A stretch of 10,799 nucleotides of DNA, taken from JBFLYE01 sp040756715 [NCBI: bacterium]. Lineage in GTDB: Bacteria; UBA9089; UBA9088. The DNA is taken from contig JBFLYE010000051.1 in NCBI GenBank assembly GCA_040756715.1, positions 1 to 10,799 of the forward strand, given 5' to 3'. A model generated the notes under the pieces. The model had not been told where the DNA came from and ran no database searches. It worked only from the letters and a program-made list of their open reading frames with translations. The position numbers and the translations under genes were made by a program. Shown here in pieces: positions 1 through 10,799 of this stretch; position 1 is the first letter of the stretch; every line of letters begins with the position of its first letter.

Positions 1-6
1 TATACT
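1..6 (+). promoter_or_regulatory. -10 box (TATACT) of the methyltransferase gene, probably leaderless
   Basis: TATACT lies at 1-6, followed by 6 nt and then the ATG at 13. The -35 region would lie outside the window. The same -10/N6/start geometry occurs before the genes at 3090, 4559 and 8560, which is why I call a promoter despite the missing -35. Transcription would start on or beside the A of the ATG, and no Shine-Dalgarno sequence fits in the space. Confidence 0.5.
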
Positions 7-12
7 TGTTAA

Positions 13-1161
13 ATGGAACTAGAAGGATTGTTTTGTCCATATTGTGGGGGGGAGCTTAAGATAAGCGAAATAGAATGGGCAGATGGCATTGTTAAATGCG
101 CCTGTTCAGAATGGCCATTCCTTTCAAACATCCTTATTTTAAAAAAGGGTGATGAAACAAAGAGGGCAATTGAGTATATAAAAAAGGGAAAGCCAGATAA
201 GGCGGCATTTCTCTTTTTGATGAAGGAGAGCAAAAGCCTATTTTTTGCTTGGGCAGCCTTACATAGAATGAGCTTCTTTACCACAATGGGTCTTTGGGGC
301 TACAGATTCTGGACAGAATACACAAGATATAGGTTTTCCTCGCCAACATTTTTATCCTTTATTCCCCTTACCTTTATTATTAAGGATATGCAGGGTGAAA
401 TTTTGGATTTTGGCTGCGGCACAGGCCATAGCTTATTCTTTCTTTCAAAATGGATAGCACCAGAAAGGATTACAGCCATTGACAGGCAATTTTCTGCCCT
501 TTATTTAGCAAAGAAATTCTTCTGTAAGGAGGCAAGGTTTATCTGCCTTGATGGAGATTTCTCCCTTCCCTTTTCCAATAATACATTTTCTAATATCCTC
601 TCTTTGGATTCATTCCATTTTGTAGAAGCAAAGAAGACCTTATCTTCTGAGTTTATGAGAATATTGAAAGATAATGGTACAATATTTCTCTCCCACCTTC
701 ATAACAAAAATAGGGAGAATCCTGTATCAGGCATTCCACTTGCACCCTCTGATTATCTCAGGTTATTTAAAGGAATGGAATACAGGGCAGTTCCGGATTA
801 TAAAATAAAGGAATCCGCTTTTGAAGGAAAGCTAGATATTTCTATAAACGAGGATGTGGGAAACTTTGCCTCCTTTTCCCTTATCCTTACAAAAAACCCA
901 AAAATATTTAAGGAATATGCAATAGATATTCTTGAGAACCTTAAAAATCCCATAATAAATCCAATATATAAATACAAGGAGAAAAAGGCTGGTTTTATTG
1001 TAAAAAGAAGGGGTTTAAGTGGGCTATATAGAAATGAATATCCCGAGGTGGAAACATATATCAAAAAAGAGGCATTTATCTACAAGAGGGATATTGAGGC
1101 AAGGAAAAGGGAGTTATTTACAAAGCTCTTTTTGGTTGATGCACCAGCAGGATATAAATGA
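13..1161 (+). CDS. Class I SAM-dependent methyltransferase with N-terminal zinc-ribbon (Trm112-like) segment
   Basis: A predicted SAM-dependent methyltransferase of 382 residues with unknown substrate. The N-terminus has Cys8, Cys11, Cys29 and Cys31 (CxxC...CxC), a small zinc-ribbon or Trm112-like segment of the kind fused to many bacterial methyltransferases. The Rossmann-type domain spans about residues 125-245. Motif I is ILDFGCGTG (130-138), an acidic residue follows the second strand (ITAIDR, 153-158), LDGDFSLPF is at 179-187, and RILKDNGTIFLSHLHN at 216-231 resembles the Methyltransf_11 strand 4/5 region. The last 130 or so residues are basic and match nothing I recognise; they may recognise the substrate. 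The ATG at 13 is supported by the zinc ribbon lying at the extreme N-terminus and by the -10 box 6 nt upstream. The dNTPase gene follows 37 nt downstream. The fold is secure; the substrate is not. Confidence 0.85.
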   Translation: MELEGLFCPYCGGELKISEIEWADGIVKCACSEWPFLSNILILKKGDETKRAIEYIKKGKPDKAAFLFLMKESKSLFFAWAALHRMSFFTTMGLWGYRFWTEYTRYRFSSPTFLSFIPLTFIIKDMQGEILDFGCGTGHSLFFLSKWIAPERITAIDRQFSALYLAKKFFCKEARFICLDGDFSLPFSNNTFSNILSLDSFHFVEAKKTLSSEFMRILKDNGTIFLSHLHNKNRENPVSGIPLAPSDYLRLFKGMEYRAVPDYKIKESAFEGKLDISINEDVGNFASFSLILTKNPKIFKEYAIDILENLKNPIINPIYKYKEKKAGFIVKRRGLSGLYRNEYPEVETYIKKEAFIYKRDIEARKRELFTKLFLVDAPAGYK

Positions 1162-1178
1162 AAAGTCAAAAGTCAAAA
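1161..1178. repeat. Short tandem repeat, AAAAGTC x2 plus AAAA
   Basis: The heptamer AAAAGTC occurs twice in a row at 1161-1174, followed by AAAA. It starts at the last base of the methyltransferase stop codon and fills half of the 37-nt gap before the dNTPase gene. It may be a small intergenic repeat or chance in A-rich DNA. Confidence 0.4.
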
Positions 1179-1185
1179 TTAAGGT

Positions 1186-1190
1186 AAGGA
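1186..1190 (+). promoter_or_regulatory. Shine-Dalgarno sequence (AAGGA) deciding the dgt start
   Basis: AAGGA ends 8 nt before the ATG at 1199. The same frame is open upstream to 1019 and contains an earlier ATG, but that extension lies inside the methyltransferase gene and has no family similarity. The site favours 1199. No -10-like box sits at the leaderless spacing here, consistent with an operon-internal gene. Confidence 0.6.
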
Positions 1191-1198
1191 TTTATAAA

Positions 1199-2236
1199 AT
1201 GGTGATTAGGGAAATCGTTGAGGATTTTGAGAAAAAGAGGCTCTCAAAATATGCAACCCTCTCAAGCAAGAGTATGGGAAGGGAAAAGGAGGAGGAAGCT
1301 TGCTCGATAAGGACAATATTCCAGAGGGATAGGGACAGGATAATTCATTCAAAGGCATTTAGGGAGCTTAAATATAAAACACAGGTATTCTTACTTCCCG
1401 AGGTAGAATCTATCAGGACAAGGCTTACCCATACGATTGAGGTTGCTCAAATTGCCAGGACAATTGCCAGGGCTTTAAGGCTAAATGAGGATTTAACCGA
1501 GGCAATTGCTCTGGGACACGACCTTGGACATCCTGCATTTGGTCATACAGGCGAGGATGCCTTAAGGGGTGTTTGCCCACTTGGTTTTAATCATTCTGAA
1601 CAATCTTTAAGGATAGTGGAGGTATTAGAGAAGGATGGGGAGGGATTAAACCTTACCTATGAGACAAGAGATGGAATATTAAAGCATTCATTGGGAGAAG
1701 ATGACCTGTTGGCTTACGATTTTAAAAAAGCAGGGCCAATTACACTGGAGGGTGCAATTGTTCTCTTTTCCGACAAAATTGCCTATATAAACCATGATAT
1801 TCAGGATGGAGAGGAGGCAGGACTTATATCAATTGAGGATCTTCCAAAGGAAGAGATAAAGCTATTGGGAAGAAAAAGCTCAGAGAGGATAAACAAGATG
1901 ATCAAGGCTGTGATTACAGAGAGCCTGGAAAAGGATTATATCGGGATGGAAAGGGAGGTTTTAGAGGCAACCGCAAGCTTGAGAGCATATCTTTACAAAA
2001 ACCTATATCAACACCCAAGGATACAGGAGGAGGCAGAAAAGGCAAAGAGGGTTATTGAGGAGCTATATTCGTATTACCTTAAGAATCCAGAGAGGATAGA
2101 GGAGAAATTTTGGTTTCTTAAAAATGTACCAATTGAAAGGCTTATCTCTGATTATATCGTAAGCCTTTCTGATATGTCTGCCCTCAATTCATACAAAAGT
2201 ATATTCTTCCCCATTCCATGGAAAGAAGCAAAGTAA
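1199..2236 (+). CDS. dgt: Deoxyguanosinetriphosphate triphosphohydrolase-like HD-domain protein (dNTPase)
   Basis: Hydrolyses dNTPs to deoxynucleosides and triphosphate; a cytosolic HD-superfamily enzyme that controls dNTP pools. Read from the ATG at 1199 it has 345 residues, typical of the shorter Dgt-like (type 2) subfamily. The metal-binding HD set is intact: His78 in RLTHTIEV, His107-Asp108 in GHDLGHPAFGHTGE, and Asp182 in LFSDKIAYINHD. The conserved FQRDRDRIIHSKAFRELKYK segment (41-60) and the R-T-R-L-T-H run are also present. Another ATG lies 60 codons upstream, but those residues overlap the methyltransferase gene and resemble nothing in the family. The HTH protein follows 16 nt after the stop. 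The family is certain; preference for dGTP over other dNTPs cannot be read from sequence. Confidence 0.93.
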   Translation: MVIREIVEDFEKKRLSKYATLSSKSMGREKEEEACSIRTIFQRDRDRIIHSKAFRELKYKTQVFLLPEVESIRTRLTHTIEVAQIARTIARALRLNEDLTEAIALGHDLGHPAFGHTGEDALRGVCPLGFNHSEQSLRIVEVLEKDGEGLNLTYETRDGILKHSLGEDDLLAYDFKKAGPITLEGAIVLFSDKIAYINHDIQDGEEAGLISIEDLPKEEIKLLGRKSSERINKMIKAVITESLEKDYIGMEREVLEATASLRAYLYKNLYQHPRIQEEAEKAKRVIEELYSYYLKNPERIEEKFWFLKNVPIERLISDYIVSLSDMSALNSYKSIFFPIPWKEAK

Positions 2237-2239
2237 TTT

Positions 2240-2243
2240 AGGA
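2240..2243 (+). promoter_or_regulatory. Shine-Dalgarno-like AGGA favouring a TTG start
   Basis: AGGA ends 9 nt before the TTG at 2253 and 15 nt before the ATG at 2259. The spacing favours TTG. The two starts differ by only two residues. Confidence 0.4.
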
Positions 2244-2252
2244 TTTATTAAA

Positions 2253-2582
2253 TTGAATATGCAAATAGGAAAAGTTCTTAAAGAAAAAAGGGAGAATATG
2301 GGATTGACCCTTGAGGAGATAGAAAGGAGGATGTTTGTCTCAAAAAGGTATCTTTCTTCACTTGAGAATGATGATATATCTGTTTTTCCCAAGGTCTCAT
2401 CTGCTATCCAAATGATTAGGCAATATGCCAGATTTCTTGGCTTTGAAGACTTTGAGATAGCAAACATGGTAAAAAATTTCAATCCCAGAATAAGACCTTC
2501 AATAATTCTTTTTGGACCACTTGTCTATATTATCCTCCTTCTTATCCTCCTTGTGATAGCCATTATCGCGATAAATCTATAA
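2253..2582 (+). CDS. Short RodZ-like protein: N-terminal HTH_25/XRE domain plus one transmembrane helix
   Basis: 109 residues (TTG start; 107 from the ATG at 2259). Residues 3-68 form a Cro/C1-type helix-turn-helix of the HTH_25 class: IGKVLKEKRENMGLTLEEIE is typical of RodZ and related membrane-anchored HTH proteins, and a YARFLGF-type segment follows. Residues about 84-108 are a continuous hydrophobic helix ending at the C-terminus. Full RodZ carries a long periplasmic region (DUF4115) after the membrane helix; none is present here. The protein could scaffold MreB-type cytoskeleton on the cytoplasmic side only, or be a membrane-tethered regulator. It ends directly against pgpA (TAA then ATG, no gap). 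In many bacteria a RodZ-like gene lies near pgsA/cinA genes, so the pgpA neighbour fits. Function is inferred. Confidence 0.75.
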   Translation: MNMQIGKVLKEKRENMGLTLEEIERRMFVSKRYLSSLENDDISVFPKVSSAIQMIRQYARFLGFEDFEIANMVKNFNPRIRPSIILFGPLVYIILLLILLVIAIIAINL

Positions 2583-3035
2583 ATGAAAAAGCTCATTCTT
2601 TTTACAGCCTATGGCTTTGGATTGGGAAAGATGCCTATTATCCCAGCAACCTTTGGAACATTGATTGGTGTTTTAATCTTTCTTCTTGCAAGCCAACAAA
2701 AGATACTTTATCTTCTTATAACCCTCTTGGTTACAATAGGAGGAATAAAAATAGCAGAGATTGCTGAAGATGCCTCAAAAATAAAGGATGACAGGAGGAT
2801 AGTCATAGATGAGGTGGCGGGTTTTTTGATAACAATGATTGGCATGGCAAATTCTCTTTTCTATCTTTTTTTAGGATTTTTCCTCTTTAGAGCTCTAGAT
2901 ATTATAAAGCCCTTTCCCATTCGCTATTCCCAAAGGCTCAAAGCCGGGCTTGGAATTATGATGGATGATGTCCTGGCAGGGATTTTTTCCTGTATTATTC
3001 TTAATCTTATCCATTACTTTTACCGCTTTTCTTAA
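2583..3035 (+). CDS. pgpA: Phosphatidylglycerophosphatase A
   Basis: Dephosphorylates phosphatidylglycerophosphate to phosphatidylglycerol at the inner membrane, the last step of PG synthesis. At 150 residues it has the usual family length. All four PgpA signatures are visible: GFGLGKMPIIPATFGT (11-26), DDRRIVIDEVAG (69-80), FRALDIIKPFPI (102-113) and GLGIMMDDVLAG (122-133), with hydrophobic membrane segments between them. The usual Pro-Gly of the first motif is Pro-Ala here. The ATG abuts the stop of the HTH gene and lacks a Shine-Dalgarno sequence, so translational coupling is likely. Confidence 0.92.
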   Translation: MKKLILFTAYGFGLGKMPIIPATFGTLIGVLIFLLASQQKILYLLITLLVTIGGIKIAEIAEDASKIKDDRRIVIDEVAGFLITMIGMANSLFYLFLGFFLFRALDIIKPFPIRYSQRLKAGLGIMMDDVLAGIFSCIILNLIHYFYRFS

Positions 3036-3054
3036 AATTTATTCTGGATAAAAG

Positions 3055-3083
3055 ATGATAACATCTTAGAAAGATTGTATAAT
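3055..3083 (+). promoter_or_regulatory. Promoter of the cupin/GMP operon, leaderless geometry
   Basis: The -35-like ATGATA (3055-3060, 4 of 6 to TTGACA) is followed by a 17-nt spacer and a perfect TATAAT (3078-3083). The ATG begins 6 nt after the -10 box, so the transcript would begin at or next to the start codon. No Shine-Dalgarno sequence is present. Confidence 0.6.
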
Positions 3084-3089
3084 CTTTAA

Positions 3090-3428
3090 ATGATCTTTGA
3101 AGAGAAACCGTGGGGAAGGTATGATGTCTTGGATTCTGGAAAGAATTTTAAGGTAAAGAGGATAAAGGTTTATCCTGGCCATAGATTAAGCCTTCAGCTT
3201 CACCACAAAAGGTCTGAACATTGGGTTGTTGTATCGGGATGTGCAAATGTCAGGGTTTCTGATAAGGAGCTAATCCTTAAAAGTGGAGATTGTGTTTTTA
3301 TTCCTGTATCCTCTCCCCATCGCTTAGAAAACAAAGGAAAAGAAGACCTTGTTGTTATTGAAATAGCCTTTGGAGATTATATAGAAGAAGATGATATTGA
3401 AAGAATAGAGGATGATTATGGAAGATAA
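3090..3428 (+). CDS. Cupin protein, stand-alone type II phosphomannose isomerase domain
   Basis: A 112-residue single-domain cupin matching the C-terminal mannose-6-phosphate isomerase domain of bifunctional ManC/AlgA enzymes. It probably interconverts fructose-6-phosphate and mannose-6-phosphate using a bound metal. Seen directly: PWGRYDVLD (7-15), PGHRLSLQLHHKRSEHWVVV (29-48) with the His/Glu metal ligands, GDCVFIPVSSPHRLENKG (86-103), and the family's C-terminal IEEDDIERIEDDYGR. In most bacteria this domain follows the guanylyltransferase in a single polypeptide of about 470 residues. Here it is separate, precedes the guanylyltransferase, and overlaps it. It starts a new transcription unit by its own promoter. 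Confidence 0.87.
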   Translation: MIFEEKPWGRYDVLDSGKNFKVKRIKVYPGHRLSLQLHHKRSEHWVVVSGCANVRVSDKELILKSGDCVFIPVSSPHRLENKGKEDLVVIEIAFGDYIEEDDIERIEDDYGR

Positions 3429-4425
3429 TACATATGTTGTTATTTTGGTGGGAGGGCCTGGAAAGAGGCTTTGGCCCCTTTCCACAAAAGAAAAGCCAAA
3501 GCCATTCCTTCCTTTAATAACAGAAAAGCCTTTAATAAAAGAAACCCTAGATAGGGTCTCTGATATATTTTCATCTAAGCAAATAAGGTTTGTTTTATCC
3601 AAAGAGCATAAAAATCTTGCTCAAAAGATATTTCCTTGGTCATCTTGTGAAAACTATATCATTGAGCCAGAGCCAAGGGATACCGCAGCGGCAATTGGCC
3701 TGACCTGCTTTAGCCTTCCTCCTAATTCCACATTGCTTGTTTTATCATCCGACCATTATATTTCTGAGAATAAAGCCTTTCAAAAGGGCCTTATCTCGGG
3801 AATAAAATTTTTAGAAGAAAACCCAGATTTTGTCTTGGTCTTTGGGATAAAGCCAGAAAGGCCAGAAACAGGCTATGGCTATATTGAAAAAGAAAGCCTT
3901 CTGAAAGAAAACATCTACAAGGTAGCCAGGTTTGTGGAAAAGCCAGATTATGAAAAGGCGAGGAAATATATAAAAAACCCAAATTATTTTTGGAACTCGG
4001 GGATTTTTATCTTTAAAAATAAAACGATGCAGAGCCATTTTAAAAAATTTCTTCCTGAGCATTTTAGGGTTCTTTCCGAAGGTAATCTTAAGGAATTCAA
4101 GAAGTTAAAGAAAGTTTCCATTGACTATGGTATAATGGAGCAGATTAAAAACATTGGAATGATTGAGGGAGATTTTTTGTGGGATGATATGGGAGGATAT
4201 TCCTCCCTTTTAAGGGTTCATAAGAAAGATGAAAGTAGCAACATTGTCTTTGGCAATCATAAGGGGATTGAGACAAAGGATTGCATTATCTATTCAGAAA
4301 ATGGTAATATTGGAACCATGGGAATCTCAAATCTTGTGATTGCATATTCAAAGGGGAATATCCTGGTTGCCTCAAGGGATAGATTGGATGAAATAAAAAG
4401 GCTGGTTGATATTATCGATGAATAA
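3418..4425 (+). CDS. manC: Mannose-1-phosphate guanylyltransferase (short form, no PMI domain)
   Basis: Makes GDP-mannose from mannose-1-phosphate and GTP for glycan or polysaccharide synthesis. Read from the ATG at 3418 it has 335 residues. Signatures: GGPGKRLWPLS (12-22), PKPF with catalytic-type Lys28, EPEPRDTAAAIG (83-94), SSDHYI (110-115), the TGYGYIE segment (151-157), FVEKPD (172-177) and WNSGIFIFK (192-200). The C-terminal GDFLWDDMGGYSSL matches the family's end. An in-frame ATG at 3412 is possible, but GAGG (3408-3411) stands 6 nt before 3418 and abuts 3412, which favours 3418. Either start overlaps the cupin gene in another frame, so the two are probably translationally coupled. The gene symbol is by homology; AlgA-type names are equally valid. 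Confidence 0.9.
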   Translation: MEDNTYVVILVGGPGKRLWPLSTKEKPKPFLPLITEKPLIKETLDRVSDIFSSKQIRFVLSKEHKNLAQKIFPWSSCENYIIEPEPRDTAAAIGLTCFSLPPNSTLLVLSSDHYISENKAFQKGLISGIKFLEENPDFVLVFGIKPERPETGYGYIEKESLLKENIYKVARFVEKPDYEKARKYIKNPNYFWNSGIFIFKNKTMQSHFKKFLPEHFRVLSEGNLKEFKKLKKVSIDYGIMEQIKNIGMIEGDFLWDDMGGYSSLLRVHKKDESSNIVFGNHKGIETKDCIIYSENGNIGTMGISNLVIAYSKGNILVASRDRLDEIKRLVDIIDE

Positions 4426-4523
4426 ATTGCGGATGTGTTTAGGTAGACAAGAAGAAGATTTGAATTTGCTTTTTTGATTTCGGAGTTCATTTGTTCCCTT
4501 AAAGCATACTTTACAAGAAATAT
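4426..4523 (+). other. Intergenic spacer between the GDP-mannose module and the EF-G-like gene
   Basis: About 100 nt with no plausible coding sequence. It contains GGATGTGTTTAGGT (4431-4444), a 12/14 match to the terminal repeat of the element at 10151. I looked for a terminator after the manC stop and found no stable stem followed by a T-run; the T-rich runs at 4469-4476 and 4528-4536 lack a stem. Confidence 0.4.
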
Positions 4524-4552
4524 TTGCCTTTTTTTTCAATATATTATATAAT
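4524..4552 (+). promoter_or_regulatory. Promoter of the EF-G-like gene, leaderless geometry
   Basis: TTGCCT (4524-4529), a 17-nt spacer and a perfect TATAAT (4547-4552), then exactly 6 nt to the GTG start at 4559. This is a good sigma-70 match with a start site on the initiator codon. There is no Shine-Dalgarno sequence. Confidence 0.7.
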
Positions 4553-4558
4553 ACGCTT

Positions 4559-6538
4559 GTGTATTCCTCTGATAAGATTCGTAATATTGCCCTCGTTTCC
4601 CATAGAGGGGCAGGAAAAACATCTTTAGCGGAAGCCCTTTTATTCAAAACAGGAAAAATAGATAGGCTTGGCTCGGTTGATTTAGAAACAAGCTTTTTTG
4701 ATTATGGAGAGGAAGAAAGAAAGAGAAAGACAACCATATCATCAAATATAGGCTTTTTTGAATACAAGGGGTATAAAATAAACATTATTGACACCCCTGG
4801 CTATTTTGATTTTATCGGTGAGGTAAGGGCAGGATTAAGGGCGGTTGAGGGTGTAATCCTTCTTATAGATGCTGAAGCAGGTGTTCAAGTAGGAACAGAG
4901 AATGTGGGAAAAATTGCAGCCGAATATAACCTTCCCCTCCTTATTTTTATCAATAAGCTTGATAAGGAGAATGCCGATTTTAATAAAACAATTGAGCAGA
5001 TAAGAAAAAAGCTCTCTCCTTCCTCTCCTTGCTTATTCATTCCCAATGGAAGGGGAGCTAATTTTTCATCCATAAGGGATGTTTTAAAAGAGGATTGCCC
5101 TGAAAAAGAGAGGCTTCTTGAAGCAATATCTGAAACAGACGATAAACTCCTTGAGAAATATTTGGAAAAGGGTGAGCTTTCATCTTCCGAGATTATGGAG
5201 GGGCTTACCTCTGGGATTAGAGAAAGAAAAATATTCCCTATCCTTTGTGGCTCATCTTTAAAAGAAATAGGGATAACAGAGCTACTTGATGCCATTATTT
5301 CATTTATTCCGGCCTATCACAAAACCATAGCATTAAATCCAGAAAACAAGGAGGTATTGGTGAACAAGGATAGCCCATTTTCTGGCTTTGTCTTTAAGGT
5401 AATTTCAGATCCCCATGTAGGCGAGCTTACATTTGTTAAGGTTTTATCCTTTAAGATGGAATCGGGGTGCGAGGTTTATAATTCAAGACAAAAACACAAA
5501 GAAAAATTGGGTCATCTTATGTTTGTTTGTGGAAAGACAAGACAGGATATCTCAGGAATTCCTGCGGGTGATATAGGCGTTGCGGTTAAGCTTAAAGGGG
5601 TGAAAATCTCTGATACCTTATGTGACCCAAGGTATTTGATAACATTTCCCGAGATTAAATTTCCCGAGCAGAGTATCTCGCTTGCCATAAACCCAAAGAC
5701 AAAGCAAGATCAGGAGAGGGTAAGTAATGGCTTACACAAGCTCTCTGAAGAAGACCCAACATTTACATCCCATTATGATGTTGAGCTTTCTCAAACAATC
5801 ATCTCGGGTATGGGTGAATTGCACCTTGAGATTATGTTGGATAAATTAAAACACAGGTTTCAAGTAGAGGTTAATGTAGAAAAGCCAAGGATTCCATATC
5901 GGGAATCAATAAAAATAAGGGCATCGGGAGAGGGAAAATACAAAAGGCAAACCGGTGGCAGGGGTCAATATGGCCATAGCCTTATCCACATAGAGCCACT
6001 TACTCTAAATAGTGAAGAGCCATTCGTCTTTGAAAATAAAATCTTTGGTGGAGCAATCCCTGCAAAGTATATCCCTGCGGTTGAAAAGGGTGTAAAGGAG
6101 GCAATGGATAAAGGAATTTTGGCAGGATATCCGGTAAAATGGGTAAAGGTTATCCTCTATGATGGCTCATTCCATGAGGTTGATTCCTCTGATATTGCCT
6201 TTCAGCTTGCCGGTTCATTTGCCTTTAAGGATGCATTTTCCAAGGCAAGTGCCTATCTTCTTGAGCCTATTATGGAGGTTGATGTCTATAGCCCAGAGGA
6301 ATATACAGGTGATATAGTATCTGACTTGAATGGAAGGAGGGGAAGGATATTAGGGATTGAAGGCGAGCGTATCCAGGCATTTGTTCCCCAAGCTGAAATG
6401 TATAAATATTCCACAAGCTTAAGGTCGCAGACGCAGGGAAGGGCAAGCTATACAATGAGATTTTCCCACTATGAGGAGGTTCCAAGCCATATAAGTAGCA
6501 AGATTATAGAAGAAAGGCAGGAGAAAACAAAATCTTAA
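4559..6538 (+). CDS. EF-G-like translational GTPase (EF-G2/FusA2 type, non-canonical)
   Basis: 659 residues, slightly shorter than canonical EF-G (about 690). Domain order is G, II, III, IV, V. The P-loop is SHRGAGKT (14-21) where EF-G has AHIDAGKT. Switch I is ERKRKTTI (53-60) instead of ERGITI. Switch II is DTPGYFDF (78-85), with Tyr82 replacing the catalytic His of DTPGHVDF. NKLD (132-135) is intact. Domain IV carries RQTGGRGQYGH (about 463-473) and the C-terminus ends with the typical GRASYTM...YEEVP segment. The DTPGY form marks the EF-G-like subgroup that includes mycobacterial FusA2/EF-G2, for which GTP binding without normal GTPase activity has been reported. It is therefore probably not the main translocase; its role may be in ribosome recycling, stress or hibernation (inference). 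The GTG start is supported by the promoter and by the family N-terminus (SDKIRNIALVSH). Confidence 0.88.
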   Translation: MYSSDKIRNIALVSHRGAGKTSLAEALLFKTGKIDRLGSVDLETSFFDYGEEERKRKTTISSNIGFFEYKGYKINIIDTPGYFDFIGEVRAGLRAVEGVILLIDAEAGVQVGTENVGKIAAEYNLPLLIFINKLDKENADFNKTIEQIRKKLSPSSPCLFIPNGRGANFSSIRDVLKEDCPEKERLLEAISETDDKLLEKYLEKGELSSSEIMEGLTSGIRERKIFPILCGSSLKEIGITELLDAIISFIPAYHKTIALNPENKEVLVNKDSPFSGFVFKVISDPHVGELTFVKVLSFKMESGCEVYNSRQKHKEKLGHLMFVCGKTRQDISGIPAGDIGVAVKLKGVKISDTLCDPRYLITFPEIKFPEQSISLAINPKTKQDQERVSNGLHKLSEEDPTFTSHYDVELSQTIISGMGELHLEIMLDKLKHRFQVEVNVEKPRIPYRESIKIRASGEGKYKRQTGGRGQYGHSLIHIEPLTLNSEEPFVFENKIFGGAIPAKYIPAVEKGVKEAMDKGILAGYPVKWVKVILYDGSFHEVDSSDIAFQLAGSFAFKDAFSKASAYLLEPIMEVDVYSPEEYTGDIVSDLNGRRGRILGIEGERIQAFVPQAEMYKYSTSLRSQTQGRASYTMRFSHYEEVPSHISSKIIEERQEKTKS

Positions 6539-6540
6539 AA

Positions 6541-7185
6541 TTATACGATTGCCTTTGCAAGAAAAAGGTCAAAGGCGGTGGTAATTTTAATATTTTTCTC
6601 CTCCCCTCCGACAATTTTTACCTTAAACCCTGCCTTTTCAACCAAGCTTGCACAATCCGTTCCATAAAATCCAGATTCGTATGCCTTTTTATAGGAGGAT
6701 AGGATTATCTCTTTCTTAAAACCCTGCGGTGTCTGAATAAGCCATAAATTTTCCCTGTTTAAGGTGTTTAAAACCCAACCATCCTTTACCATTTTTACCG
6801 TTGAGCTACTTTTAATGCCAGGAACAGCCGCTCCCTCATCTTTTGCAGAAGAAATAATCCGCTCTATTAAATCTTTACTTACAAATGGCCTCGCACCATC
6901 GTGGATAATCACAATCTCTGTATCTTTATCCAACATCTTTAGCCCATTATAAACAGAATCCTGCCTTTTTTCTCCGCCAATGGCTATTTTTTTTATCCCG
7001 AAGATATTGTTTTCCTTCCACCAATTGAGCCTTTTTTCAGAGACAACAAGGATAATAGATGAAACAGCCTTTAACATCGCCTCTATTGTATAGAATATAA
7101 GGGGCTTTCCCTTTAATGGAAAATATAATTTATCCCTTTTTGTCCTCTTAGACCTTCCTGCTGAGACAATTATTGCCTCTGTCAT
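6541..7185 (-). CDS. ispD: 2-C-methyl-D-erythritol 4-phosphate cytidylyltransferase
   Basis: Third step of the MEP isoprenoid pathway: MEP plus CTP gives CDP-ME. 214 residues, slightly short for IspD (usually 225-240). Seen: IIVSAGRSKRTKRDK (5-19) with Arg14 and Lys19 in the place of the catalytic Arg/Lys of the GxGxRM...PKQ loop, although the second Gly and the Met are replaced; GGEKRQDSVYNGL (70-82); HDGARP (95-100, usually HDAARP); QTPQGF (151-156); TDCASLVE (176-183); and NIKIT (198-202). The loop is shorter than in E. coli, but all catalytic positions seem present. It follows the AtpZ-like gene by 3 nt without a clear Shine-Dalgarno sequence. It converges on the EF-G-like gene with only 2 nt between the two stops and no visible terminator. 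Confidence 0.88.
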   Translation of the reverse strand: MTEAIIVSAGRSKRTKRDKLYFPLKGKPLIFYTIEAMLKAVSSIILVVSEKRLNWWKENNIFGIKKIAIGGEKRQDSVYNGLKMLDKDTEIVIIHDGARPFVSKDLIERIISSAKDEGAAVPGIKSSSTVKMVKDGWVLNTLNRENLWLIQTPQGFKKEIILSSYKKAYESGFYGTDCASLVEKAGFKVKIVGGEEKNIKITTAFDLFLAKAIV

Positions 7186-7188
7186 TTT

Positions 7189-7407
7189 TTAAGGATTCTT
7201 TAGAGACTTGATGATCATCCTTACTCCTTCATAAAACCCGGCAATTATCCCAAGTAGTAAAAAGATAATAGTAAAAAGGGGCGATGTTTTAAGGAATTTA
7301 TCAAGATAATAGCCTATTCCAAGACCAATAAAACAAGAGGCAACCATTACCCATCCAATTCCAGAGATCACCGCAATTCTTTTAGCAAGGCCTTTGTTTA
7401 TCACCAT
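7189..7407 (-). CDS. AtpZ/AtpI-like small membrane protein
   Basis: A 72-residue protein with two predicted transmembrane helices (about 12-35 and 43-62). The spacing of GIGYYLDKFLKTSPLFTIIFLLLGIIAGFYEGV fits the AtpZ/AtpI family, which typically has a G-x-x-LD-x-x-x-x-TxP-x-F core and lies upstream of F-type ATPase operons as an assembly or cation-handling factor. Here it precedes ispD, with no atp genes in view, so its link to ATP synthase rests on family resemblance only. Start: the ATG is followed by GTG, and a TATAAT box lies 10 nt upstream. Confidence 0.72.
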   Translation of the reverse strand: MVINKGLAKRIAVISGIGWVMVASCFIGLGIGYYLDKFLKTSPLFTIIFLLLGIIAGFYEGVRMIIKSLKNP

Positions 7408-7417
7408 AGGTTTTAAA

Positions 7418-7447
7418 ATTATACAACTTTCTTTATCTTAATAACAA
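7418..7447 (-). promoter_or_regulatory. Minus-strand promoter of the atpZ-like/ispD unit
   Basis: On the minus strand, TTGTTA (7447-7442), an 18-nt spacer and a perfect TATAAT (7423-7418), then 10 nt to the ATG at 7407. The transcript would have a leader of only about 3-4 nt. No Shine-Dalgarno sequence is present. Confidence 0.55.
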
Positions 7448-7452
7448 TAAAA

Positions 7453-7481
7453 TTGCAAAACACCTAGTTGTAATATAAAAT
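7453..7481 (+). promoter_or_regulatory. Promoter of mqnC, near-leaderless
   Basis: TTGCAA (7453-7458), a 17-nt spacer and TAAAAT (7476-7481), then 8 nt to the ATG at 7490. An alternative TATAAA at 7474 gives a poorer 15-nt spacer. The -35 box lies 5 bp from the -35 box of the divergent promoter, so the two probably compete or are co-regulated. Confidence 0.55.
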
Positions 7482-7489
7482 ATCAAAAA

Positions 7490-8512
7490 ATGAGAATAAG
7501 CAAAGAAGAGGCAATTAAGCTATTTTCCCTTGATATATTCTCCTTAGGAAAAATGGCAGACAAGGTCCGAAAAAAATTTCATCCAGAGGATTATGTAACC
7601 TTTGTTATTGATAGAAACATTACATTTACCAATATCTGCATAGCAAAATGCAAATTTTGTGCCTTCTTTGCAAGGAAAAAAGGGGATGGCTTTCTACTTT
7701 CCCTTGATGAAATTCTAAAGAAAATAGAGGAGTTGGTAAGGATTGGAGGAACCCAGGTTATGCTTCAAGGTGGTCTTAATCCAGAGCTTTCCCTTTCCTG
7801 GTATTGTAACCTCCTTTCCTCTATTAAAAAAAGGTTTAATGTCTGGCTTCATTCTTTATCTCCCTCTGAGATTGTCTTTCTTTCAAAAAAAGAGGGTCTT
7901 TCTATAAAAGATGTGCTTATTTCCTTAAAATCCGCAGGGCTTTCTTCCCTGCCGGGAGCAGCTGAGATATTGTGCGATCGGGTAAGAAAAAAGGTATCGC
8001 CAAATAAGCTAAGTGCAGATGAATGGCTTAATGTAATGGAGGAAGCCCATTCTATCGGAATGCATACAACGGCCACAATGACATTTGGAATTTGTGAGAC
8101 AATAGAGGAGCGTATTGAGCATCTTATAAAAATAAGAAACCTCCAGGATAAAACAGGTGGATTTAAGGCTTTTATCCCCTGGACATTCTCTCCAAAGCAT
8201 ACAGGGCTTTCAAGGATAAAACAGAGAGGGGCGATTGACTACCTAAAAACATTAGCAATCTCAAGAATATTTCTTGATAATATTCCAAATATCCATGCAG
8301 GATGGGTAACCGAGGGACCAAACATTGCCCAAATTGCCCTATTCTTTGGAGCAAATGATCTGGGAGGAATTTTAATGGAAGAGGAAGTTATAAAAAAAAC
8401 AGGCATAGAATATCATTTAAATATAGAGAAAATGGTTAATCTTATAAAGGGTGCAGAAAAAATCCCAGCTCAAAGGAATTCAAGGTATAATATTTTGTAT
8501 GTGTTTAGCTAA
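7490..8512 (+). CDS. mqnC: Cyclic dehypoxanthinyl futalosine synthase (radical SAM), menaquinone futalosine pathway
   Basis: A radical SAM enzyme that cyclises dehypoxanthine futalosine in the futalosine route to menaquinone. 340 residues. Cys50, Cys54 and Cys57 (CIAKCKFC, CX3CX2C) bind the 4Fe-4S cluster. The preceding VTFVIDRNITFTNIC (36-50), MLQGGLNPEL (91-100), AGLSSLPGAAEIL (149-161), HTTATMTFG (192-200), LQDKTGGFKAFIPWTF (208-223) and FGANDLGG (286-293) all follow MqnC. SLPGAAEIL is one residue shorter than the common SLPGGGAEIL. MqnE and CofH are the related alternatives; the IDRNI...TN start and the FGANDLG end favour MqnC. No other mqn gene is in view. The last codons (YVFS and the stop) are encoded by a sequence identical to the terminal repeat of the element at 10151. 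Confidence 0.88.
   Translation: MRISKEEAIKLFSLDIFSLGKMADKVRKKFHPEDYVTFVIDRNITFTNICIAKCKFCAFFARKKGDGFLLSLDEILKKIEELVRIGGTQVMLQGGLNPELSLSWYCNLLSSIKKRFNVWLHSLSPSEIVFLSKKEGLSIKDVLISLKSAGLSSLPGAAEILCDRVRKKVSPNKLSADEWLNVMEEAHSIGMHTTATMTFGICETIEERIEHLIKIRNLQDKTGGFKAFIPWTFSPKHTGLSRIKQRGAIDYLKTLAISRIFLDNIPNIHAGWVTEGPNIAQIALFFGANDLGGILMEEEVIKKTGIEYHLNIEKMVNLIKGAEKIPAQRNSRYNILYVFS
8498..8511 (+). repeat. Solo copy of the element terminal repeat, GTATGTGTTTAGCT
   Basis: An exact 14/14 match to the left end of the element at 10151-10323 and to 10706-10719. It sits in the last codons and stop of mqnC. No inverted partner is found in the next few hundred bases, so this is either a remnant of an insertion or a separate use of the same motif. 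Confidence 0.55.
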
Positions 8513-8524
8513 AAGCAAAAAAAC

Positions 8525-8553
8525 TTGACAAATTTTAATTTTTAGGTTATATT
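8525..8553 (+). promoter_or_regulatory. Strong promoter of the PilX-like gene, leaderless geometry
   Basis: A perfect TTGACA (8525-8530), a 17-nt spacer and TATATT (8548-8553), then exactly 6 nt to the ATG at 8560. It is the best -35 match in the window. Transcription would start at the initiator codon. An in-frame ATG at 8566 has no Shine-Dalgarno sequence that would favour it. Confidence 0.72.
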
Positions 8554-8559
8554 TAAGAT

Positions 8560-9012
8560 ATGAAGATGAGTTTTAAGAAAAAAAGGGGTGCTGCTTTATT
8601 TGTTGCCATTATATTTTCTCTTCTGTTTGTTGTGATGGCAATTACCATTGCGGTTATAACCATCTCAAATGTCAAGACAACCGCAGAGCTAAAAAAGGGC
8701 TTAAAGACATTCTATGGAGCAGAGGCAGGAATCTTTGCCCTTGCAGGATGGATCATCAAAAATCATAGGTTTGATGTTCCAAGGGATATATTAGAGCCTT
8801 GTCTAGGAGAAGATAGACCAGGTATGGGTTGCTATCGGATAAAAAGGTGGAATATAGTTGGTGAGACAATACACCCAGCAAGGGGATTTTCTAGCCATTG
8901 GTGGGCGTTTGATGTCTTTATAGACTCAGAGGCTCCGCCAAATAATCCAAGTGCAGAGATAGAGGCAATTGTCGCCATTCCTTTTATAAAGAGAAGCTAT
9001 GGAAATGAATAA
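8560..9012 (+). CDS. PilX N-terminal-domain-like, type IV pilus-associated protein
   Basis: 150 residues. A basic start (KMSFKKKRG) is followed by a hydrophobic helix (about 11-34) and FYGAEAGI (51-58). This matches the PilX_N pattern: a K/R-rich leader ending in Gly, a long hydrophobic stretch, then F-Y-x-A-E-A-G. The Gly-Ala junction at 10/11 could be a prepilin peptidase site, but the Glu5 typical of major pilins is absent (Val). The exported part is short and contains CLGEDRPGMGCY, where two Cys could pair. It probably has a minor pilin or pseudopilin role, exported to the cell surface. No other pilus gene is in view. The gene end overlaps the PaREP1-like gene by 8 nt. Confidence 0.68.
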   Translation: MKMSFKKKRGAALFVAIIFSLLFVVMAITIAVITISNVKTTAELKKGLKTFYGAEAGIFALAGWIIKNHRFDVPRDILEPCLGEDRPGMGCYRIKRWNIVGETIHPARGFSSHWWAFDVFIDSEAPPNNPSAEIEAIVAIPFIKRSYGNE

Positions 9013-9376
9013 AAATAACCTTAAGGTAAAGCGATATATAGAGCAGGCAAATAAATACATAAAAGAGGGTGAAAAAGAGCTTAAGGAGGATAACTTACTT
9101 CAAGCTTCGGAAAAATATTGGGGTGCAGCCGCACAAATGGTAAAGGCTTGGGCAGAATCTTTAGAGATGCGTCATAATGGCCATGCCTGGCTTTTTGAGG
9201 GTGTTTCTAAGCTTTCTTTACAAACGAATGACCCTTTAATTAAAAAACAATTCTTAATGGCAGGTATGCTTCATACCAATTTTTACGAAGGCTGGCTTAC
9301 CAAGGATGAGGTAGAAACAGCTGCCTCAGAAATTAAGGCATTCTGTGATAAAATAAAAGAAATAATAAAAAAATAA
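9005..9376 (+). CDS. PaREP1-like small helical protein, paralogue 1
   Basis: 123 residues, predicted all-helical and charged. The segment LLQASEKYWGAAAQMVKAWA (31-50) matches the core of the PaREP1 family (first defined from Pyrobaculum repeats and found in archaea and some bacteria), as does the downstream LH-x-x-FYE-G-x-L (89-98). HNGH at 57-60 is shared by all three copies. I recall PaREP1 proteins as HEPN-like, but no conserved R-x4-6-H RNase motif is visible across the three. The start is placed at 9005 rather than the ATG at 8999 because both paralogues begin at this point (M-x-KNNL). It overlaps the PilX-like gene by 8 nt, so it is probably translated from that transcript. Biochemical function is unknown. 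Confidence 0.75.
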   Translation: MNKNNLKVKRYIEQANKYIKEGEKELKEDNLLQASEKYWGAAAQMVKAWAESLEMRHNGHAWLFEGVSKLSLQTNDPLIKKQFLMAGMLHTNFYEGWLTKDEVETAASEIKAFCDKIKEIIKK

Positions 9377-9778: not shown

Positions 9779-10150
9779 ATGAGTAAAAATAACCTTAGGG
9801 TAAAGCGATATATAGAAAAGGCGGATAGATACATAACGCAGGCTGAAAAAGAGTTTAAAAAAGGAGAGCTTTGCCAGGCATCTGAGAAATACTGGGGAGC
9901 ATCTGCTCAAATATTAAAGGCATGGGCAGAGTATAAGGGCATACAGCATAATGGCCATATCTGGTTATTCAAAGCAGCCGATAATCTTTCTTGTGAAGAG
10001 AAAGACCATAATTTAAAGAAACAATTCGGTCTTGCTTCTGCCCTACATACAAATTTCTATGAAGGATGGCTGACTAAAGGTGAAATAGAAAGTTATGGGG
10101 AGGAAGTAAAGGCATTCTGTGATAAAATAAAAGAAATAATCAAAAGATAA
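9779..10150 (+). CDS. PaREP1-like small helical protein, paralogue 2
   Basis: 123 residues, the same length as the other two copies and about 74% identical to paralogue 3 (91 of 123 by my count). It keeps QASEKYWGASAQILKAWA (33-50), HNGH (57-60), KKQFGLA (80-86), LHTNFYEGWLTK (89-100) and the FCDKIKEIIKR tail. Differences cluster in surface-type positions 13-32 and 72-78. It starts 9 nt after the stop of the broken DUF5618-like gene, without a clear Shine-Dalgarno sequence. Its stop TAA is the last three bases of an 8-bp direct repeat flanking the MITE-like element, so the element inserted exactly at its 3' end. Confidence 0.75.
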   Translation: MSKNNLRVKRYIEKADRYITQAEKEFKKGELCQASEKYWGASAQILKAWAEYKGIQHNGHIWLFKAADNLSCEEKDHNLKKQFGLASALHTNFYEGWLTKGEIESYGEEVKAFCDKIKEIIKR

Positions 10151-10244
10151 GTATGTGTTTAGCTCGGTGAGAATAAAATTGGGAAATAGGCACAAAGGCA
10201 CAGAGGCACAAAGGCGAGAGAGTTTATTTATTACTTGCTTTCTT
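10118..10244 (+). repeat. 127-bp exact direct repeat, copy 1
   Basis: Identical base for base to 10673-10799, offset 555 bp. It covers the last 11 codons of paralogue 2 and the first 94 bp of the MITE-like element. The base just upstream differs (C at 10117, T at 10672). The second copy ends with the window. Confidence 0.95.
10143..10150 (+). repeat. Left flanking direct repeat AAAGATAA (probable target duplication)
   Basis: AAAGATAA abuts the left end of the element and is repeated at 10324-10331, directly abutting its right end. The copy includes the TAA stop of paralogue 2. Confidence 0.6.
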
Positions 10245-10323
10245 TGTGCCTTTGTGCCTAGGTATATAGGACAGCTAAACAACGGCTATGGTAATTTGGT
10301 TAAGAGAGAAGCTAAACACGTAC
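10151..10323 (+). mobile_element. MITE-like element, 173 bp, 14-bp terminal inverted repeats
   Basis: The left end GTATGTGTTTAGCT (10151-10164) and right end AGCTAAACACGTAC (10310-10323) are inverted repeats matching at 13 of 14 positions. The element is flanked on both sides by AAAGATAA. A third inward-facing AGCTAAAC is at 10273-10280. The interior contains 8-bp tandem repeats and a long hairpin (10187-10260). No transposase or ORF fits, so it would be moved in trans. Removing the element and one flank copy leaves paralogue 2's stop followed by AG and the ATG of paralogue 3, a natural tight operon junction, which supports insertion. The same sequence restarts at 10706. Confidence 0.65.
10187..10260 (+). 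repeat. Hairpin with 19-bp arms built from 8-bp tandem repeats
   Basis: The left arm TAGGCACAAAGGCACAGAG (10187-10205) pairs with CTTTGTGCCTTTGTGCCTA (10242-10260) at 18 of 19 positions, loop 36 nt. The left part is a tandem octamer: GGCACAAA, GGCACAGA, GGCACAAA, GGCGAGAG at 10189-10220. The stem is not followed by a T-run, so it is not a standard terminator, but RNA from the region would fold strongly. Confidence 0.8.
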
Positions 10324-10331
10324 AAAGATAA
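10324..10331 (+). repeat. Right flanking direct repeat AAAGATAA
   Basis: The second copy of the 8-bp flank, abutting the right end of the element and lying 2 nt before the ATG of paralogue 3. Confidence 0.6.
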
Positions 10332-10333
10332 AG

Positions 10334-10705
10334 ATGGGTAAAAATAACCTTAAGGTAAAACGCTATATAAACCAGGCAGATAGATATATAAAAGAGGCCG
10401 AAAAGGAGCTAAGTGAGAATAACTTGCTTCAAGCCTCTGAGAAATATTGGGGAGGAGCTGCACAAATGGTAAAGGCTTGGGCAACCGCTAAAGGTATTCA
10501 GCACAATGGGCATATGTGGCTATTTAAGGCGGTGGATAATCTTTCCGAAGAGGAAAAAGAGCCCTATTTAAAGAAACAATTCGGTTTAGCAGGTATGCTT
10601 CATACGAATTTCTATGAAGGCTGGCTTACTAAAAGAGAAATAGAGGATTATGCCCAAGAGGCAAGGGCTTTTTGTGATAAAATAAAAGAAATAATCAAAA
10701 GATAA
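10334..10705 (+). CDS. PaREP1-like small helical protein, paralogue 3
   Basis: 123 residues. The N-terminal half is closest to paralogue 1 (shared LLQASEKYWG, AAQMVKAWA), while the middle (KGIQHNGH, KKQFGLA) and last 11 codons match paralogue 2, giving a mosaic look consistent with recombination among copies. HNGH (57-60) and LHTNFYEGWLTK (89-100) are retained. The ATG is exactly 555 bp downstream of the start of paralogue 2, because gene and element lengths add up to that period. Upstream is only a weak AAAG ribosome site. Its 3' end is followed without gap by another copy of the MITE-like element. Confidence 0.75.
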   Translation: MGKNNLKVKRYINQADRYIKEAEKELSENNLLQASEKYWGGAAQMVKAWATAKGIQHNGHMWLFKAVDNLSEEEKEPYLKKQFGLAGMLHTNFYEGWLTKREIEDYAQEARAFCDKIKEIIKR

Positions 10706-10799
10706 GTATGTGTTTAGCTCGGTGAGAATAAAATTGGGAAATAGGCACAAAGGCACAGAGGCACAAAGGCGAGAGAGTTTATTTATTACTTGCTTTCTT
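10673..10799 (+). repeat. 127-bp exact direct repeat, copy 2, at the window end
   Basis: The last 11 codons of paralogue 3 plus the first 94 bp of a second MITE-like element, identical to 10118-10244. It ends exactly at the last base of the window. Confidence 0.95.
10706..10799 (+). mobile_element. Second MITE-like element, truncated by the window end
   Basis: Begins with GTATGTGTTTAGCT directly after the stop of paralogue 3, preceded by AAAGATAA (10698-10705) as in the first copy. It is identical to the first 94 bp of the element at 10151, including the tandem octamers; the right arm of the hairpin and the right terminal repeat lie outside. Confidence 0.65.

What the first reader, a model, noticed from the sequence alone, without database searches (positions are those of the whole stretch)
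1..8562. Fixed -10/N6/start geometry suggests leaderless transcription as the rule for first genes
Four genes have a TATAAT-like hexamer ending exactly 6 nt before the start codon: TATACT/ATG 13, TATAAT/ATG 3090, TATAAT/GTG 4559, TATATT/ATG 8560. In three of these the -35 is in view, and each time the spacer is exactly 17 nt. mqnC (8 nt) and the minus-strand unit at 7407 (10 nt) are close to this. Sigma-70 RNA polymerase usually starts about 7 nt after the -10 box, so the first transcribed base would be the first base of the start codon. dgt, the manC-like gene and the HTH gene inside units have Shine-Dalgarno-like sites instead. Prevalent leaderless mRNAs are known in some bacteria such as Actinobacteria and Deinococcus, but an invariant 6-nt spacing in such a lineage is notable.
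Basis: partly seen in the sequence, partly recalled or inferred. Interest (0 to 1): 0.62.

Follow-up and report, generated by a model that had tools for sequence, protein, structure and literature searches.

The report
Leaderless promoters in an uncultured bacterium
In this uncultured bacterium about a fifth of the genes that begin a transcript seem to be read from promoters so close to the start codon that the messenger RNA has no leader, a layout already known from Deinococcus and mycobacteria.

Summary
In detail: four window genes have a TATAAT-like box ending 6 nt before the start codon. In 894 kb sampled from three genomes of the family, boxes at 6 or 7 nt before an in-frame start are over-represented at first genes: 45 of 171 promoter sites, against 4 of 175 and 3 of 109 in the other frames and 6 of 90 at internal genes. 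About half such boxes carry a TTG -35 at 17-18 nt, and at 6 nt the base before the start codon is a pyrimidine in 20 of 23 against 62 of 228 controls. This fits transcription starting on the start codon. Two parts are overstated: 6 and 7 nt are equally common, and only about a fifth of first genes are involved. An EF-G-like gene has TATAAT and no SD in three family members but an SD in 16 of 16 other phylum genomes. Yet strict whole-genome counts show an excess across the phylum, not only in the family. The 6-7 nt geometry is published for Deinococcus: a new member of a known kind. No RNA data were available.

The parts
1..6 (+). -10 box TATACT, 6 nt before ATG 13 (methyltransferase gene); contig edge, -35 not visible
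   Evidence: PF08241
3055..3060 (+). weak -35 ATGATA (4 of 6), 17 nt before the -10 of the cupin gene
3078..3083 (+). -10 box TATAAT, 6 nt before ATG 3090 (cupin, mannose-6-P isomerase C-terminal type)
4524..4529 (+). -35 TTGCCT (4 of 6), 17 nt before the -10 of the EF-G-like gene
   Evidence: also in L127 of G001
4547..4552 (+). -10 box TATAAT, 6 nt before GTG 4559 (EF-G-like gene); same geometry and GTG in G001
7453..7458 (+). -35 TTGCAA, 17 nt before the -10 of mqnC
7476..7481 (+). -10 box TAAAAT, 8 nt before ATG 7490 (mqnC): near-leaderless
7418..7423 (-). -10 box TATAAT, 10 nt before ATG 7407 (AtpI-like gene, followed by ispD)
7442..7447 (-). -35 TTGTTA, 18 nt before the minus-strand -10
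8525..8530 (+). -35 TTGACA (6 of 6), 17 nt before the -10 of the 8560 gene
8548..8553 (+). -10 box TATATT, 6 nt before ATG 8560 (PilX_N match below its cut-off)
1199..2236 (+). dgt, inside the unit: no -10 at 6-7 nt here; in G002 its homolog has TATAAT 7 nt before ATG

Best explanation
The boxes are -10 elements of ordinary housekeeping-sigma promoters (-35, 17-18 nt, -10) placed so that RNA polymerase starts on, or within a base or two of, the first base of the start codon. About a fifth of first genes would thus be made as leaderless mRNAs, presumably translated by ribosomes that engage the 5'-terminal start codon; other first genes would have leaders, some with SD sites. Shown by sequence: position, frame specificity, -35, pyrimidine before the start codon, recurrence in relatives. 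Inferred: the actual 5' ends, the sigma factor and the mode of translation.
For: Best promoter to next in-frame start, family f1 (G000, G001, G002): 23 at 6 nt and 22 at 7 nt of 171 sites, against 4 of 175 and 3 of 109 in the other frames and 6 of 90 at internal genes; by genome 28 of 119, 12 of 37 and 5 of 15. With the -35 not used for selection, the 66 in-frame boxes at 6-7 nt carry TTG at spacer 17 in 28.8% and at 18 in 22.7%, other spacers 0-6.1%; only 11 such boxes are found out of frame and 20 at internal genes. The base at -1 is a pyrimidine in 20 of 23 at 6 nt and 14 of 22 at 7 nt, against 62 of 228 control starts (Fisher p = 2e-8 and 0.001). EF-G-like gene: G001 keeps -35, TATAAT, N6 and GTG; G002 has TATAAT with N9. 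Pairs G000_1/G001_17 and G000_391/G001_30 (2 of the 9 first-gene pairs shown) keep a box against the start while the distance moves between 6 and 7. The G002 dgt homolog has TATAAT-N7-ATG. The full consensus TTGACA-N17-TATAAT-N6-ATG occurs in 17 of 19 phylum genomes and 3 of 22 others, reversed pattern 0 of 41 (no other distance compared there).
Against: No RNA data. Genes and starts come from my own crude caller (script, run from then on). Net of background (16 of 188 boxes at 10-11 nt) the share with fixed starts is nearer 16% than 24%. In the less selected set of 66 boxes the pyrimidine share is only 37 of 66. Strict whole-genome counts do not show the peak in G002: 8 at 6 nt, 5 at 7 nt, 7 at the control distance of 13 nt. 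In UBA9088, the nearest named genome, the short sequence before mqnC shows AAGGAGG and no such box, so the mqnC placement is not seen there. G000 has no 16S hit, so its own anti-SD was not seen.
Confidence: 0.87

Rival explanations
1. The TA-rich hexamer is a translation element (an AT-rich non-SD ribosome site as described for the FCB group), not a promoter.
For: The family is A-rich just upstream of starts, at internal genes too, and a motif model finds a separate T/A-rich element directly abutting the start. AT-rich RBSs are reported for the FCB group.
Against: The 6-7 nt box is scarce at internal genes (6 of 90 sites; 16 of 191 against 46 of 188 with fixed starts), and about half the boxes carry a TTG -35 at 17-18 nt.
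Confidence: 0.06
2. AT-rich chance: TATAAT-like hexamers are common at 37% GC and the reader selected the matches.
For: Low GC (0.374) and four selected examples.
Against: In-frame against out-of-frame contrast 45 against 4 and 3; binomial p = 1e-25 against a flat distribution over 2-40 nt. Samples of G014 (GC 0.368) and G006 (GC 0.343) give 0 of 37 and 1 of 26.
Confidence: 0.02
3. The true start codons lie further downstream and these promoters give ordinary leaders.
For: Start codons were not determined experimentally, and some genes have several in-frame candidates.
Against: The EF-G-like start region aligns in 19 genomes, and in 16 of them an SD sits right before it. For a translational GTPase in G017 the protein match begins at query residue 5 directly after the N6 ATG.
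Confidence: 0.05

Closest known systems
-10 motif adjacent to ORFs in Deinococcus-Thermus (PMC12340547; outline, results section 7 and discussion read)
   Same: -10 hexamer mainly 6-7 bp before the ORF, in nearly a third of D. radiodurans genes, giving leaderless mRNA, side by side with RBS genes
   Different: There the motif is TANNNT and is reported sufficient at the proper site; here the box is nearer TATAAT and about half the boxes carry a TTG at 17-18 nt
TA-led (leaderless) genes in bacteria, survey of 953 bacterial genomes (PMC3160421; abstract and sections 7 and 9 read)
   Same: TA-like signal about 10 bp upstream as leaderless marker; TAtAAT form in low-GC Firmicutes; change between SD and TA signals among orthologs
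   Different: The groups named in the section read include no candidate phylum, apart from one unclassified genome; here the change is shown for one gene across one phylum
Leaderless transcriptome of Mycobacterium tuberculosis (PMC3898074; summary and passages read)
   Same: 26% of genes with a primary TSS are leaderless; purine at +1 and pyrimidine at -1 preferred
   Different: Mapped by RNA there; no conserved -35 motif found there
Leaderless class of GeneMarkS-2, as cited in the StartLink paper (PMC9581028; passages read)
   Different: Gene-finder inference on NCBI representative genomes

Membership tests
Leaderless (TA-led) bacterial genes | -10 box placed so that the expected TSS falls on or next to the start codon | tested here: met
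   45 of 171 sites at 6-7 nt against 4 of 175 and 3 of 109 out of frame
Leaderless (TA-led) bacterial genes | confined to first genes of transcripts | tested here: met
   largely so: 6 of 90 sites at internal genes; 16 of 191 against 46 of 188 with fixed starts
Leaderless (TA-led) bacterial genes | no SD before those starts | tested here: inconclusive
   true for the EF-G-like gene in three genomes; not counted over all sites, and the box occupies the SD place
Leaderless (TA-led) bacterial genes | mRNA 5' end at the start codon | not testable with these tools
   no RNA data; only the indirect pyrimidine signal
Deinococcus-type -10 motif | -10 mainly 6-7 bp before the ORF | tested here: met
   23 at 6 nt, 22 at 7 nt of 171 sites
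Deinococcus-type -10 motif | works without a -35 | not testable with these tools
   TTG at 17 or 18 nt in about half of 66 boxes says only that many have one
FCB-type AT-rich RBS | element equally present at internal genes (my reading of what an RBS must do) | tested here: not met
   6 of 90 sites at internal genes for the 6-7 nt box
SD-led bacterial translation | anti-SD CCTCC at the 16S 3' end | tested here: met
   present in the 6 full-length 16S loci found among 19 genomes, including genus mate G001; G000 has no 16S hit

The most novel reading that the evidence does not exclude
One family of an uncultured phylum has moved a large share of its first genes from SD-led to leaderless expression by bringing complete -35/-10 promoters up to the start codon, while keeping the anti-SD in its 16S rRNA and using SD sites only weakly even inside operons. 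Its phylum mates remain mainly SD-led, so the phylum would record a genome-wide change of initiation mode that can be followed gene by gene.
Probability: 0.3. Interest if true: 0.55.

Novelty: new member of a known kind. Interest (0 to 1): 0.36.

Why it matters
It adds an uncultured lineage to the bacteria with many apparent leaderless genes and gives a usable rule for correcting start codons in its genomes. In the EF-G-like gene the homologous start carries an SD in 16 relatives and a promoter box in three, so a change between two initiation modes can be traced in related genomes. The frequent -35 differs from what was reported for Deinococcus and M. tuberculosis.

Tried and rejected
A three-class motif model (leaderless, SD, none) was dropped as a measure of shares: with shuffled upstream letters it still put 50%, 58% and 68% of genes in the '-10' class (real first genes 66%). 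Only its position peaks served as a lead. An SD count against an in-gene control is noisy because AGGAG-like strings are common in coding sequence (G000 first genes 49 of 139 against 38 in the control; internal 54 of 162 against 45); positional profiles were used beside it.

Idea that first-gene sites at 21-40 nt prove ordinary leaders: dropped, since such sites are no commoner in frame (36 of 171) than in the next frame (54 of 175). Only single cases with a visible GGAGG, four among the 70 rows asked for, point to leaders.

Idea that the phylum as a whole is strongly leaderless: the samples of G014, G006 and G009 speak against it (0 of 37, 1 of 26, 1 of 11), but strict whole-genome counts show some excess there too. 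Idea that loss of S1, S21 or IF3 explains the trait: S21 in 17 of 19 and IF3 in 19 of 19 genomes; a long S1-like match, below the family's cut-off as in all 19 genomes, is present in the three f1 genomes.

Upstream comparison of mqnC with 24 named loci found no box at 6-8 nt that I could make out, but nearly all are distant (65% identity or less) or short upstream. The phylum's name was not established; the nearest named genome is UBA9088 (MqnC 79% identical). I recalled, without testing it, that UBA9088 may belong near 'UBA9089' or Desantisbacteria; searches did not settle it (no held paper has both 'leaderless' and 'Desantisbacteria').
Full report
What was checked. The window is contig C51 of a 1.55 Mb, 218-contig, 96%-complete draft genome (G000) of an uncultured bacterium; GC is 0.374. 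The nearest named genome found is UBA9088 (MqnC 79% identical); no phylum name was established. The four 6-nt placements are in the sequence as stated, and so are the 17-nt spacers, although the -35 at 3090 and at 4559 match only 4 of 6. mqnC has its box at 8 nt and the minus-strand gene at 10 nt. Genes by family search: methyltransferase (13), dgt (1199), HTH_25 (2253), pgpA (2583), cupin (3090), manC-like (3421), EF-G-like (4559), ispD (7185, minus), AtpI-like (7407, minus), mqnC (7490), sub-threshold PilX_N (8560).

Genome sample. I took 80 contigs of G000 (606 kb of 1,553 kb), 10 stretches each of G001 (same genus, 200 kb) and G002 (same family, 87 kb), and 10 each of G003 (same order), G006, G009 and G014 (same phylum). 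Most G000 contigs were taken in number order; six were chosen for earlier hits (C35, C194, C212; C133, C188, C49). None of the three sites is among the 28 counted below, and one of the 28 lies in C49. Genes were called by a simple script from codon usage (script, run). 'First' means a divergent upstream neighbour or a gap above 60 nt; 'internal' means same strand and a gap of 30 nt or less; genes with gaps of 31-60 nt were left out of both.

Position of promoters. For each first gene the best -35/-10 pair from up to 150 nt upstream to 150 nt inside was found and the distance to the next in-frame start noted. In G000, 119 of 143 first genes have a site; 14 are at 6 nt and 14 at 7 nt, against 2+2 and 2+1 in the two other frames, and 5 of 63 sites at internal genes. 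In G001 it is 12 of 37, in G002 5 of 15, in G014 0 of 37 and in G006 1 of 26; in G003 2 of 13 and in G009 1 of 11. Pooled: f1 45 of 171 sites (205 first genes), the other four genomes 4 of 87, Fisher p = 8e-6. Distances of 8-13 nt are mildly over-represented (24 in frame, 20 in the two other frames together). Sites at 21-40 nt are not (36 of 171 in frame, 54 of 175 and 19 of 109 in the other frames), though four printed cases carry a visible GGAGG. With starts fixed as the 5'-most ATG, 46 of 188 f1 first genes have a box at 6-7 nt against 16 of 188 at 10-11 nt. The share is thus about a fifth: 22-24% gross, about 16-20% net of background.

Is it a promoter, and where would it start? When boxes are chosen by the -10 alone, the 66 in-frame boxes at 6-7 nt carry TTG at spacer 17 (28.8%) or 18 (22.7%) and rarely elsewhere (0-6.1%). 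Boxes at 8-12 nt show 12.3% and 7.7%, boxes at 20-40 nt 10.4% and 5.0%, and the 20 boxes at internal genes 5% and 10%. The base before the start codon is T or C in 20 of 23 sites at 6 nt and 14 of 22 at 7 nt, against 62 of 228 control starts; in the less selected set of 66 boxes it is 37 of 66. In 27 stronger sites with longer distances the sixth base after the box is a pyrimidine in about 44%. Transcription start sites in M. tuberculosis prefer a purine preceded by a pyrimidine, so this fits a start on the first base of the codon. That step is inference from sequence.

Relatives. An EF-G-like match is present in all 19 genomes of the phylum that the search returned. For the best match of each, G000 and G001 have -35, TATAAT, 6 nt and a GTG start; G002 has TATAAT with 9 nt. 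In the 16 others the aligned start is preceded by GGAGG (14) or GGGGG (2) at SD distance. The 16S 3' end carries CCTCC in the six full-length loci, including genus mate G001. Of 9 G000/G001 first-gene pairs shown, two have a 6 or 7 nt box in both genomes, and in each of these the distance differs by one, which speaks against an invariant 6. In G002 the dgt homolog has TATAAT 7 nt before its ATG, while in the window dgt sits inside a unit without such a box. In UBA9088 the sequence before mqnC shows AAGGAGG and no box.

Shine-Dalgarno use. In f1, SD-like cores are present but weak before first and internal genes, and stronger in G014 and G009 first genes. G006 is also weak at first genes (11 of 38 against 12 in the control) without being leaderless in the sample, so weak SD use does not by itself go with the trait.

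Results against a sharp family trait. Counts of TTG-N20-TATAAT at 6, 7 and 13 nt before ATG over whole genomes are 51, 26 and 18 for f1 (G002 alone 8, 5 and 7), 10, 6 and 2 for the two order mates, and 91, 104 and 59 for the other 14 genomes. Per megabase the 6+7 count is about 13.6 in f1 and about 5 elsewhere. Relative to the 13-nt control, however, the mean of 6 and 7 is 2.1-fold in f1 and 1.7-fold elsewhere, so the boundary is graded at best. One example outside f1 is a translational GTPase (TypA- or LepA-like by my inference, 601-629 aa frames) in G017 and G016, with 6 and 7 nt, where the protein match begins right after the ATG. Repeats inflate some counts: six near-identical sites in G005, four identical and two identical in G001.

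Known or new. A -10 motif 6-7 bp before ORFs is the published geometry in Deinococcus. Leaderless genes were reported in 207 of 953 bacterial genomes, with change between SD and TA signals among orthologs, and 21.6% of bacterial species are predicted to use leaderless transcription. This is therefore a new member of a known kind. Points of difference are the frequent -35 and the within-phylum change seen in the EF-G-like gene.

Noticed in passing
window 8999-9376, 9779-10150, 10334-10705: Three similar ORFs of 123-125 aa in a row (NNLKVKRYI type, by eye); the first has no NCBIfam match, the others were not searched.
   Followed up: no
window 10151-10330 and 10706-10799: Nearly identical spacer behind two of these ORFs, with runs of AGGCACAAAGGCACAGAGG (by eye).
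   Followed up: no
G000:C133:10617-12671 (L002, L003), G001:C48, G002:C45: The other EF-G copy shows one TGA inside the match in the three family members (G004:C206 and G007:C89 show one TAA); recoding, frame error or the end of the alignment was not examined.
   Followed up: no
phylum genomes G003, G006, G007, G008, G011: No long S1-like (rpsA) match, only short S1-domain hits or none (G008), and G004 has a partial one at a contig end, while f1, f3, f7 and f8 genomes have a long one (none of 19 reaches the family cut-off).
   Followed up: no
family f1, internal genes: SD-like cores are only weakly enriched before internal starts, which are A-rich instead, unlike in G014.
   Followed up: partly
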